Part shown: positions 3,378 through 14,795 of the stretch, piece by piece | How positions within the stretch are numbered: position 1 is the first letter of the stretch | How the letters are laid out: the number at the start of each line of letters is the position of its first letter | DNA from: Strigomonas culicis | Lineage: Eukaryota > Euglenozoa > Kinetoplastea > Trypanosomatida > Trypanosomatidae | Reading direction: 5' to 3' | Assembly: GCA_000482145.1 (NCBI GenBank) | Contig: AUXH01000485.1 | Span: forward strand, 1-14,795 | DNA: 14,795 nucleotides | Position numbers and translations under genes: made by a program | The notes under the pieces: generated by a model | Seen by the model: only the letters and a program-made list of their open reading frames with translations | Databases searched by the model: none | What the model was told of the DNA's origin: nothing

Positions 3378-4373
3378 ATGTTTGTGCTTCTCCGTGACTA
3401 TGTGAATGGCTTCTTCCTGGACGTGGCTTACCTCTACGCAATGCTCTCCGCGCTCCAGCGGCGGAAGGTCGGGCGTAGCGGGGAGGGTGAGAGTGGGCCA
3501 TCCGGTGAGCTCGGCCCCCGACAGGAGCTGCGCGTGCCGCTGTCGGCGCTCAAGCTCTGGGTGATGCTCGTCTCCGTGAGCGGGCTGTCCCTGCTCGGTG
3601 CCGACTACATCCCTCTGTTCCTGGAGCTCAAGACGATTTTTGTGTACCTCATCATCCTCTCGCCGCCGTACGCACAGCAGGACCTGTATGACCGCGCTTT
3701 TGGGCCGCTGCTGCACCGCGTGGCCGCGCTTCTCATGTCCTTCCAAAGTAACAACCTCTTCTCGAAGCGCTGCAGCCTCTTCTGCGTCCGCCGGCTCATC
3801 TTCCTGTCGATGGCCATTATGAACTTTGTCGACCGCAGCGAGGTGATGGACCCCGACGCCGTGAGGGACATCATGAGCGGTCTGGTCTTTTCGCGGCGCG
3901 CGCTCGATGACGTGGACGCGCTGGAGAAGGCCAAGAGCCCGACGGGTGCAGGTGCGGAGGGGAGCCAGCCGCGGCACGTGACAGACGCGGTGGCGACCCA
4001 GGCAAAGGGATTGCTGGACAACCTGCGCTCCGTCGGCACCTTCGCCGAGGAGTACAAGCGGCTGGAGAGCCGGCGGACGAGCCGGGCGGCGAGCGAGCAC
4101 GGGGTGGTAGGGCCGTCCGCGCCTCTCAAGCGGTCCGCGTCGGCCGGGCCGCAGCGTGCGGGGACGGCTTCTGGCGACACCCGCCGGCGCTACCAGGACC
4201 CGGAGCCTTTGCGTAGACTGCCTGGCACGGCCGCGGAGATGGATTCGGTGTCGCGCCACGACCCCTCCCTAGAGGACTACGGCAGTGTGTCTTCCCACGA
4301 GGAGGGGGAGGTGAAGAAGAAGAAGAGCTCTGGCTTTAGAAGTCTGTTCTCGCGAAAGAAGCATATGGCATAG
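3378..4373 (+). CDS. TB2/DP1/HVA22 (REEP/Yop1-like) family membrane protein
   Basis: A 331-residue protein whose first half resembles the REEP/Yop1 family, which inserts hydrophobic hairpins into the ER membrane and supports tubule curvature. Hydrophobic stretches lie at about 10-26, 58-78 and 79-96. The segment at about 77-112, with LELK followed by a hydrophobic run, SPPY, and then LYDRAFGPLL, matches the family pattern of a polar residue cluster, a membrane run and a conserved tyrosine/phenylalanine-containing helix. Residues about 185-331 form a Ser/Arg/Ala/Gly-rich, probably disordered tail that ends in a basic patch (KKKK at 313-316, RKK at 326-328). The ATG at 3378 is chosen because the frame upstream opens only with a TTG codon and this is the first in-frame ATG after the splice acceptors. 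The tail makes the protein longer than typical Yop1. Family assignment is by pattern recognition and is fairly good; the exact role is inferred. Confidence 0.75.
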   Translation: MFVLLRDYVNGFFLDVAYLYAMLSALQRRKVGRSGEGESGPSGELGPRQELRVPLSALKLWVMLVSVSGLSLLGADYIPLFLELKTIFVYLIILSPPYAQQDLYDRAFGPLLHRVAALLMSFQSNNLFSKRCSLFCVRRLIFLSMAIMNFVDRSEVMDPDAVRDIMSGLVFSRRALDDVDALEKAKSPTGAGAEGSQPRHVTDAVATQAKGLLDNLRSVGTFAEEYKRLESRRTSRAASEHGVVGPSAPLKRSASAGPQRAGTASGDTRRRYQDPEPLRRLPGTAAEMDSVSRHDPSLEDYGSVSSHEEGEVKKKKSSGFRSLFSRKKHMA

Positions 4374-12688: not shown

Positions 12689-13366
12689 ATGTCTTCACAG
12701 CCAGACAAAACGGAGAAACCCGTAACGCACGCGCCCGTTGTGGGCGAGGCCTCCACGGCCGTCGCACCGACGGCAGACGCGGCCGCAGCCGTGCCGCCTA
12801 AGACGCGCTTGTTGAAAGAAGTGGAGGAGGAGGAGCGGCGCTACATCTACGAGACCTTGTACAAGTCTATCGAGAACGAGGACGACCAAGCGGTGCGCGA
12901 CCACTTGACGGTGAGCGACACGTTGCGCTTTGCGAAGGAGGCACGGGCGGAGTTTTATCGCACGTCATCGCTCCCCCTCTCGCAGCGGTTCAACGAGGTA
13001 CTGGCCTTGGTGGCCACCATGGCGAACGTGCGGCTGCCCTTTGCGAAAAAGAACCAGGATGAGGCCCCCGTCGTGCGTACCGCGGCAAGCGTGCAGCACA
13101 ATCATAGGGTGCTCAACATTTTTGTGATTGTAACGGTGCTGATGTTCACCCTGCCGCTGATCAACCTCTTTGTTGGGATGCACGTGATTGCTCCGCGCTA
13201 CAACGTGGACCCTGTCCTGTGTGGTGGGTTTCTCTCCGTCGCCACTGTCCTGGCCATTTCGATCGGCTACATCATCTACGGTCTGCTAGAGCGCGCCCCA
13301 TCCGACGTGGCCGCGGCCAGCGGCAAGGAGGTGCTCCAGTCTGCCGCAACGAAGAAGGCGCAATAA
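12689..13366 (+). CDS. VMA21-like two-pass membrane protein, putative V-ATPase assembly factor
   Basis: A 225-residue protein whose last third resembles VMA21, the ER chaperone that assembles the Vo sector of the vacuolar proton ATPase. TM1 lies at about 142-163 and contains LMFTLPLINLF, similar to the VMA21 pattern of a membrane run broken by a proline. A short loop with aromatic/charged residues follows (164-175), then TM2 at about 176-199 ending in YIIYGLLER. The protein ends in TKKAQ, so K222-K223 sit at -4 and -3: a canonical KKXX ER-retrieval signal. Yeast Vma21 also uses a C-terminal dilysine motif. A two-pass topology with both ends cytosolic fits. The unusual part is the N-terminal extension of about 140 residues: an Ala/Pro-rich disordered start (1-38), then a charged helical region (39-120) with no match I recognise. 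Typical VMA21 is about 75-100 residues. Any other ER-retrieved two-pass protein remains possible. Confidence 0.6.
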   Translation: MSSQPDKTEKPVTHAPVVGEASTAVAPTADAAAAVPPKTRLLKEVEEEERRYIYETLYKSIENEDDQAVRDHLTVSDTLRFAKEARAEFYRTSSLPLSQRFNEVLALVATMANVRLPFAKKNQDEAPVVRTAASVQHNHRVLNIFVIVTVLMFTLPLINLFVGMHVIAPRYNVDPVLCGGFLSVATVLAISIGYIIYGLLERAPSDVAAASGKEVLQSAATKKAQ

Positions 13367-13951: not shown

Positions 13952-14270
13952 CGGTGGGGTTTTGCTCCTTTCGGTTTACTTCTTTGCACCCTGTACCATG
14001 ATTGAATGATTGTAACACATCCAATTGTTTTTTTCCCCTTTCTGACCTGTGCTTGATAATGACAGTAACGACGATAAGAAAACGTCTTCTCGTATTGCCA
14101 GTACCCTGGATGACCTCTATCGTATCGAGTTTTCCAGCCTCATTATTGCGCTACTCCTCCTTTCCTTCCACTTTCTATCCTGATATATATATATATATAT
14201 ATATACATATCAATCTTTCCACCAAGTACTGACGGTATTCCATTTTTCTTATTATCTTCTCTTATAAGAA
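13952..14270 (+). other. Intergenic region before the guide-RNA cluster
   Basis: Non-coding stretch that probably holds the 3' UTR of the 62-aa gene. It contains a T/C tract (14028-14043), a pyrimidine-rich stretch (14140-14180) and an AT repeat (14183-14205). I looked for further C/D or H/ACA RNAs here and found no set of boxes with acceptable spacing. Confidence 0.6.
14183..14205. repeat. AT dinucleotide microsatellite
   Basis: Alternating AT repeat of about 23 bases upstream of the H/ACA candidate. It is similar to the repeat at 8790-8815. Confidence 0.9.
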
Positions 14271-14336
14271 GTGTTGTCAGGTATTGCAGTGGACGTGACT
14301 TCAATCGTCATTGCAGGTTCAAACAGCACGAGATCC
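14271..14336 (+). ncRNA. Single-hairpin H/ACA guide RNA (AGA box)
   Basis: A 66-nt segment folds as a trypanosomatid-type H/ACA RNA, which would guide pseudouridylation by the CBF5 complex in the nucleolus. The lower stem pairs 14271-14277 with 14323-14329 (7 bp, one GU). The upper stem pairs 14285-14290 and 14292-14295 with 14306-14309 and 14310-14315 (10 bp, one GU, one bulged G at 14291), closed by a 10-nt loop. Between the stems is a symmetric 7 + 7 nt pocket (14278-14284 and 14316-14322). An AGA box lies at 14331-14333, one base after the lower stem. The distance from the base of the upper stem to the box is 15 nt, matching the 14-16 nt rule of the family. Trypanosomatid H/ACA RNAs are single hairpins with AGA instead of ACA. 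The predicted target would read roughly UUGAACC-UN-AUACCUG, allowing wobble; I could not place it in rRNA. Confidence 0.7.
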
Positions 14337-14395
14337 AATTATGAAATTAACGACTTTCAAACGTATATAGATCTACCTTTATCATTATGTGCGCT

Positions 14396-14480
14396 TTCTT
14401 CATGATGCACACACTTATTCTACGAGCGATGTCTGACAGTTCGTTGATGATATACTATAACATGCACTACCAGCTGAAGC
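14396..14480 (+). ncRNA. Candidate box C/D snoRNA
   Basis: Ordered C/D boxes with family-like spacing: C-like ATGATGC at 14402-14408 (one mismatch to RUGAUGA), D' CTGA at 14433-14436, C' TGATGA at 14445-14450 and D CTGA at 14474-14477. The two spacers are 24 and 23 nt, and D' and C' are 8 nt apart, as expected for a double-guide RNA directing 2'-O-methylation. A long terminal stem is not visible (only about 3 bp), and the C box is imperfect, so this is the weaker complete candidate. The ends are approximate. The position between an H/ACA candidate and another C/D candidate supports it. Confidence 0.45.
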
Positions 14481-14570
14481 TCATACACTCTTATGTATGC
14501 TGTTTATCGATACTATATTTTCCTTTTTTTTTCACCACTTACGTGCCTATCGCCACCCGCGCGGAGTGTA

Positions 14571-14671
14571 CGCAGTGCAGCTGATGATCATACGCGGTAC
14601 ATATTAACAGCAACATCTGACCCCGAATGACGCTACTATCGTTTTGGAGCTAATCGCTGACCTGCACTGTG
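14571..14671 (+). ncRNA. Box C/D snoRNA with 10-bp terminal stem
   Basis: About 101 nt carrying C TGATGA at 14582-14587, D' CTGA at 14617-14620, C'-like ATGACG at 14627-14632 and D CTGA at 14657-14660. The terminal stem pairs 14571-14580 with 14662-14671: eight consecutive Watson-Crick pairs (CAGTGCAG with CTGCACTG), then one GU and one CG. One unpaired base lies on each side between the stem and the C and D boxes. The spacers (29 and 24 nt) and the 6-nt D'-C' gap suit a guide for 2'-O-methylation by fibrillarin/NOP56/NOP58/SNU13. The base before UGAUGA is C rather than a purine, a small deviation. Guide sequences lie just upstream of 14617 and 14657. I could not assign targets. Confidence 0.6.
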
Positions 14672-14700
14672 CGCTGCGCTGCGTGGCGTGGCGTGGCGCG
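14671..14700. repeat. GCGCT/GCGTG short tandem repeats
   Basis: Two GCGCT-like units are followed by three GCGTG units, in a GC-rich island (14661-14740) that contrasts with the AT-rich surroundings and lies between two C/D RNA candidates. Confidence 0.7.
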
Positions 14701-14738
14701 GTGTCCACGTGCGTGCCTGCTGTGCGCTTGTGTGCCGC

Positions 14739-14795
14739 TGATGATACCATTTGACATTAAGCACAGTTTGACCTGAACCCTTAATGAACGTGAAC
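14739..14795 (+). ncRNA. Candidate box C/D snoRNA, truncated by the window end
   Basis: C box TGATGA at 14739-14744 in the same local context (GCTGATGAT) as the C box at 14582. It is followed by D' CTGA at 14773-14776 after a 28-nt spacer, and a degenerate C'-like ATGAAC at 14784-14789. The layout mirrors the RNA at 14571-14671, but the D box and 3' stem would lie beyond the window, so it cannot be confirmed here. A matching stem would need to complement the GTGTGCCGC that precedes the C box (14730-14738). Confidence 0.4.

What the first reader, a model, noticed from the sequence alone, without database searches (positions are those of the whole stretch)
14271..14336. Single-hairpin H/ACA RNA with AGA box hidden in an apparently empty region
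Two stems (7 bp and 10 bp with one bulge), a symmetric 7 + 7 pocket, an AGA box right after the lower stem and a 15-nt pocket-to-box distance all agree with the trypanosomatid H/ACA design. Several independent constraints are met at once, which is hard to get by chance.
Basis: partly seen in the sequence, partly recalled or inferred. Interest (0 to 1): 0.75.

Follow-up and report, generated by a model that had tools for sequence, protein, structure and literature searches.

The report
Trypanosomatid single-hairpin pseudouridine-guide RNA (TB9Cs3H2)
The hairpin is real: it is this trypanosomatid's copy of a known small guide RNA (TB9Cs3H2) that in a related parasite directs one chemical change in ribosomal RNA, so it is ordinary, though it sits in a cluster of guide RNAs and has a diverged second copy elsewhere in the genome.

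Summary
The one Rfam match in the window above a family's cut-off is RF01556, trypanosomatid H/ACA snoRNA TB9Cs3H2, at 14270-14333 (+), 56.6 bits against a cut-off of 50. Stems, 7+7 pocket, AGA box and 15-nt spacing are as described. Anatomy alone would be weak: three other places in the window meet a bare form of the descriptor. The family match, a second genomic copy and the target carry the case. Contig C128 holds a second copy with nearly the same pocket; its lower stem differs at 4 of 7 pairs on both sides and still pairs. The arms pair with a conserved 28S stretch, UGAAC[U]AUGCCUGA, in agreement with the published T. brucei site, Psi at LSU-alpha 939, whose guide also affects srRNA1 maturation (PMC6411936). 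The 'empty' region is a snoRNA cluster: two C/D candidates with complete box sets, and a third cut by the contig end, follow. Expression and the organism's own rRNA could not be tested. A known family in another species: low interest.

The parts
14270..14336 (+). Predicted mature H/ACA-like snoRNA, TB9Cs3H2 family
   Evidence: RF01556 match 14270-14333, 56.6 bits, cut-off 50; 3' end placed 3 nt after the AGA by the published rule
14271..14277 (+). Stem I, 5' arm
   Evidence: pairs with 14323-14329, 7 of 7; the second genomic copy differs at 4 pairs on both sides and 1 on one side and still pairs 7 of 7
14278..14284 (+). Pocket, 5' arm; with T14277 it holds the guide TCAGGTA (14277-14283)
   Evidence: 7 of 7 identical in the C128 copy; pairs 7 nt, one G-U, with TGCCTGA of a fungal 28S fragment
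14285..14315 (+). Stem II (14285-14290/14310-14315 and 14292-14295/14306-14309), bulge G14291, apical loop 14296-14305
   Evidence: pairs listed; the minimum-energy fold differs slightly in the upper part
14316..14322 (+). Pocket, 3' arm; guide GTTCA (14317-14321)
   Evidence: 6 of 7 identical in the C128 copy; pairs 5 nt with TGAAC just before the target U
14323..14329 (+). Stem I, 3' arm
14331..14333 (+). AGA box
   Evidence: sequence; aligned to the AGA of the family model
14402..14477 (+). Candidate C/D snoRNA in the same cluster: C 14402 (ATGATGC, one mismatch), D' 14433, C' 14444, D 14474; arm before D resembles SNORD33
   Evidence: box scan; RF00133 match 14390-14483 at 23.4 bits, below its cut-off of 44
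14581..14660 (+). Candidate C/D snoRNA: C 14581, D' 14617, C' 14624 or 14627 (two mismatches), D 14657; flanks 14573-14580 and 14662-14669 pair 8 of 8
   Evidence: box scan; flank pairing; 12-nt perfect pairing of the D' arm to a printed trypanosomatid 18S probe
14737..14795 (+). Third C/D candidate, incomplete: C-like CTGATGA, then CTGA near 14772, cut by the contig end
   Evidence: read from the sequence printed; no complete box set found by the scan

Best explanation
It is the gene of a box H/ACA-like (AGA-box) guide RNA, an orthologue or second-locus copy of T. brucei TB9Cs3H2. Inferred steps: the RNA is cut from the polycistronic transcript that carries the upstream protein genes and the snoRNA cluster; it binds the Cbf5/Nhp2/Nop10/Gar1 core; its two pocket arms pair with large-subunit rRNA at UGAAC-U-A-UGCCUGA and place the U for conversion to pseudouridine at the site called LSU-alpha 939 in T. 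brucei. Shown here: family membership by sequence and structure, stem conservation between two genomic copies, an intact pocket, and pairing of the arms to that stretch in 28S rRNA of a fungus. Not shown here: transcription, protein binding, modification, and the organism's own rRNA.
For: RF01556 above its cut-off over all 63 positions, E 1.7e-10. Second copy in the same genome at C128:263-326, 44.5 bits, below the cut-off, with a 15-nt identical run over the 5' pocket arm, 41 of 64 identities overall and compensated stem I. The family search rings in 0 of 14 control genomes. Arms pair 5+7 with a fungal 28S fragment around the U; 6 of 5000 arm shuffles and 11 of 4667 equally spaced window positions do as well on that fragment. 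T. brucei work: guides LSU-alpha Psi939; silencing lowers that Psi, raises the 3.9-kb precursor and lowers sr1 (PMC6411936, section 31). The site agrees with the spacing to Gm925 and Am927 of T. brucei when set against recalled human positions Gm1509, Am1511, Am1521 and Psi1523; a printed primer set for human A1521 covers this stretch. C/D candidates follow, as expected for mixed trypanosome clusters (PMC2613932).
Against: No RNA data. The rRNA of this genome was not found: the rRNA family searches (RF02543, RF01960) did not complete, a universal LSU motif had 0 hits, and a longer target stretch with 2 mismatches had one hit whose locus I did not read, against one for the control pattern. A pattern for full 7+7 pairing had 26 hits against 16 for the control; I did not read those loci and saw no rRNA stretch that I know among the matched letters. 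The shorter target pattern hit one place (control 0), whose flank reads by eye as protein-coding, not rRNA. Only about 500 nt of fungal LSU were scanned. Covariation rests on two sequences (31 of 500 shuffles reach it).
Confidence: 0.93

Rival explanations
1. A decayed or silent second copy: the C128 copy, which sits with the TB9Cs3H1 genes, is the working gene, and the window copy is a relic.
For: Two copies exist; the C128 copy lies beside two TB9Cs3H1 matches, the neighbour expected from the T. brucei cluster name.
Against: The window copy fits the family model better (56.6 against 44.5 bits), keeps all 7 lower-stem pairs, pocket and AGA, and is followed by C/D candidates with complete box sets.
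Confidence: 0.05
2. An AGA-like RNA of the second Psiscan class: same shape and box, but not dependent on Cbf5 and not a pseudouridine guide.
For: Psiscan describes such RNAs with the same structural features (PMC2613932, passages).
Against: The family member in T. brucei guides a measured Psi that falls on silencing; the pocket, not just the shape, is conserved.
Confidence: 0.015
3. A chance hairpin beside an AGA.
For: Three other places on the + strand of the window satisfy a bare form of the descriptor.
Against: Family match E 1.7e-10; a second copy with compensated stem changes and nearly the same pocket.
Confidence: 0.005

Closest known systems
TB9Cs3H2 (Rfam RF01556), T. brucei H/ACA snoRNA guiding LSU-alpha Psi939; named with Atsnor77 in PMC6562600 (passage)
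   Same: Full-length model match above cut-off; conserved UCAGGUA and GUUCAA pocket arms; single hairpin; AGA
   Different: Different organism; lower-stem letters differ from the family consensus while pairing; no TB9Cs3H1 is recognised beside it in the window
Second copy in the same genome, C128:263-326
   Same: 5' pocket arm, 6 of 7 bases of the 3' arm, base of stem II, AGA
   Different: Lower stem and apical part rewritten, 23 of 64 positions differ; below the Rfam cut-off
Canonical two-hairpin H/ACA snoRNAs of other eukaryotes
   Same: Pocket about 15 nt from the box, guide pairing on both sides of the U
   Different: One hairpin, no H box, AGA instead of ACA, as described for trypanosomatid members (PMC2613932, passages)

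Membership tests
Rfam RF01556 TB9Cs3H2 | Score at or above the gathering cut-off over the model | tested here: met
   56.6 bits, cut-off 50, positions 1-63 of 63
Rfam RF01556 TB9Cs3H2 | Conserved pocket arms UCAGGUA and GUUCAA | tested here: met
   both present
Rfam RF01556 TB9Cs3H2 | Pairing with LSU rRNA at the Psi939 site | tested here: inconclusive
   5+7 pairs with a fungal 28S fragment; the same stretch is printed in animal and human 28S primers; own rRNA not found in the held assembly and the rRNA family searches not answered
Trypanosomatid H/ACA-like snoRNA | Single hairpin of 57-91 nt with stem I of 5-8 bp, perfect stem next to the pocket, apical loop >=5 nt | tested here: met
   about 67 nt, 7 bp, 6 unbroken pairs above the pocket, 10-nt loop; limits
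Trypanosomatid H/ACA-like snoRNA | AGA box 1-3 nt after stem I, target U 13-16 nt before it | tested here: met
   1 nt; 15 nt
Trypanosomatid H/ACA-like snoRNA | Compensatory changes in the stems | tested here: met
   4 of 13 pairs changed on both sides, 26 of 26 cells paired, two sequences only, 31 of 500 shuffles as good
Trypanosomatid H/ACA-like snoRNA | Expressed as a small RNA and destabilised when Cbf5 is depleted | not testable with these tools
   no RNA data here
Trypanosomatid H/ACA-like snoRNA | Usually clustered with C/D snoRNAs | tested here: met
   2 complete C/D box sets within 400 nt downstream, none by the same scan in the rest of the window on either strand; both are candidates, unsupported by a family match over cut-off

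The most novel reading that the evidence does not exclude
The genome keeps two TB9Cs3H2 genes in two snoRNA arrays with the same guide but rewritten stems, because the two RNAs share out the two known roles of this snoRNA (pseudouridine guiding and support of srRNA1 release) or are expressed at different stages.
Probability: 0.05. Interest if true: 0.4.

Novelty: new member of a known kind. Interest (0 to 1): 0.15.

Why it matters
Biologically it adds one more genome to a described family. The one mildly useful fact is the pair of copies with the same guide and rewritten stems, one of which falls below the Rfam cut-off and would be missed by routine annotation. The snoRNA repertoires of two Phytomonas isolates are already tabulated in print (PMC3916237, passage; the table itself not seen), so this gene may already be listed if the organism is one of those.

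Tried and rejected
Anatomy as proof: set aside, since three other + strand places in the window meet a bare form of the descriptor. The one with a long stem II (13205, AGA 13288) lies inside a reading frame (12689-13366) and has no Rfam match over cut-off.

Full 7+7 pairing to a target in the genome: 26 hits, control 16; loci not read. Short target pattern: one hit, in C452; 2000 of the 2914 bases of its locus were read by eye and look protein-coding, so it was dropped; the two further C452 pieces were fetched but not read, and no family search was run on them.

Other copies: the family search and the pattern TCAGGTANTGNAGT (control 2) give the same two places. TB9Cs3H1 gave matches only in C128. 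The stretch 13960-14795 has no further copy in the genome apart from a simple-repeat match.

Organism: a protein search with the 225-aa protein scored nothing at E <= 0.001 among 4055 candidates. A spliced-leader pattern had 0 hits. The genome size of 17.7 Mb resembles Phytomonas EM1 (17.8 Mb) and HART1 (18.1 Mb) (PMC3916237, passages); that is an inference only. Whether C485 and C128 are two ends of one array or two arrays is open.

An earlier scan with other limits listed further loose C/D pairs in the window and in L007. Papers opened in passages but carrying no claim here: PMC10662448, PMC3091756, PMC3542256, PMC2780460.

Full report
Observation. The 63-nt RNA folds at -21.4 kcal/mol (z -2.78; 3 of 200 shuffles as good); the other strand does not stand out (z -0.85; 37 of 200).

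Chance. In a bare form (stem II of 4 bp or more) they are met on the + strand by 8 start/AGA combinations at 4 places, this one included, and nowhere on the - strand; one other place has stem II of 6 bp or more. A looser descriptor takes 84 of 231 AGA triplets. Psiscan's authors counted 1,458,629 candidates in T. brucei, repeats not yet merged, under a crude model of this kind that also required rRNA pairing (PMC2613932, passages). What lifts this site above chance is homology: against all 4227 Rfam families the window has one match over cut-off, RF01556 TB9Cs3H2, 14270-14333, 56.6 bits, E 1.7e-10 (alignment).

Second copy. The window is contig C485 (1-14795) of an unnamed 17.7-Mb assembly of 670 contigs. 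RF01556 has two matches there: this one and C128:263-326 at 44.5 bits, below the cut-off of 50. The two agree at 41 of 64 positions. The 5' pocket arm is identical, the 3' arm differs at one base. Stem I pairs 7 of 7 in both, with 4 pairs changed on both sides and 1 on one side; over 13 named pairs all 26 cells pair, while sliding the partner by 1 to 3 columns leaves at most 50% paired. With two sequences the shuffle control is weak (31 of 500). The part of stem II above its sixth pair does not pair in the same register in the C128 copy. A pattern for the pocket core finds only these two places.

Target. T. brucei TB9Cs3H2 guides Psi939 of LSU-alpha; silencing it lowers that Psi, raises the 3.9-kb precursor and lowers sr1 (PMC6411936, section 31 read; further passages). 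The figure with the pairing is not held. From recalled rRNA I proposed the stretch GGUGAAC[U]AUGCCUGA. It is printed in fungal LSU sequences (PMC12287172, passages), in a 28S primer used for sea slugs (PMC2790442, passage) and, up to GCCUG, in a human 28S primer for A1521 (PMC6856654, passage). On one fungal fragment of about 500 nt the window arms and the C128 arms both give this place as the best site, 5 pairs before and 7 after the U, with one base skipped on each arm next to the U; 6 of 5000 shuffled arm pairs and 11 of 4667 equally spaced window positions reach that score. T. brucei has Gm925 and Am927 (PMC9283944, passages), 14 and 12 nt before Psi939; recalled human positions Gm1509, Am1511, Am1521 and Psi1523 have the same spacing around this stretch. 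The organism's own rRNA was not seen: rRNA family searches did not complete, a universal LSU motif had 0 hits, a longer target stretch with 2 mismatches had one hit not examined further, and the short target pattern hit one place with a flank that reads as protein-coding.

Surroundings. Upstream, on the same strand, are protein genes: a poly(A)-binding protein (four RRM stretches and an MLLE domain), an EF-Tu-like GTPase, a DUF2009 protein and BBS1, all over Pfam's cut-offs; two more with matches below the cut-offs (RPC4-like, VMA21-like); and two, of 331 and 62 aa, with none. Downstream, two C/D snoRNA candidates have complete C, D', C', D sets (14402-14477 and 14581-14660); the same scan finds none in the rest of the window, and 2 of 2000 simulated sequences reach two. 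The first resembles SNORD33 in its guide arm (RF00133, 23.4 bits, below its cut-off of 44). The second has a D' arm that pairs 12 of 12 with a Trypanosomatidae probe ('Tryp 681') and with a T. brucei 18S primer stretch (passages; pairing), and flanks that pair 8 of 8. The fifth base before D' pairs with a U; matching the letters of Um714 and Am721 to that stretch puts it at Um714, the target of TB9Cs2C6; this register is my inference. A third C/D candidate is cut by the contig end. C128 carries two TB9Cs3H1 matches over cut-off beside its H2 copy; the full-set C/D scan found none in the first 10 kb of C128.

Verdict. A member of a described snoRNA family in its usual kind of setting. The mechanism is published for the T. 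brucei member and inferred here. The two copies with one guide and rewritten stems are the only slightly unusual point; whether they lie in one array or two cannot be told from this assembly.

Noticed in passing
window 14402-14477 (+): C/D snoRNA candidate with a complete box set; its arm before D, ACATGCACTACCA, is identical to the SNORD33 consensus there.
   Followed up: partly
window 14581-14660 (+): C/D snoRNA candidate; D' arm pairs 12 of 12 with trypanosomatid 18S, by inference at the site of T. brucei Um714; flanks pair 8 of 8.
   Followed up: partly
window 14737-14795 (+): A third C/D-like start, cut off by the contig end, so the array seems to continue beyond the window.
   Followed up: no
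L007 (C128) 263-676: Second TB9Cs3H2 copy below the Rfam cut-off, followed by two TB9Cs3H1 copies.
   Followed up: yes
L007 (C128) 733-769: Possible C/D snoRNA start; the arm before CTGA (GTAGGGTAAAAT) is complementary to the recalled LSU stretch UUUUACCCUAC, perhaps the TB9Cs3C3 counterpart. It has no complete box set.
   Followed up: no
whole assembly G000: A universal LSU motif and a spliced-leader pattern have no match; tandem rRNA and SL repeats may be missing from the held assembly.
   Followed up: partly
window 14154-14213: (TA)n run with flank; a related stretch lies at C257:17732-17790, 82% identical.
   Followed up: no
window 3378-4373: 331-aa reading frame with no Pfam match.
   Followed up: no
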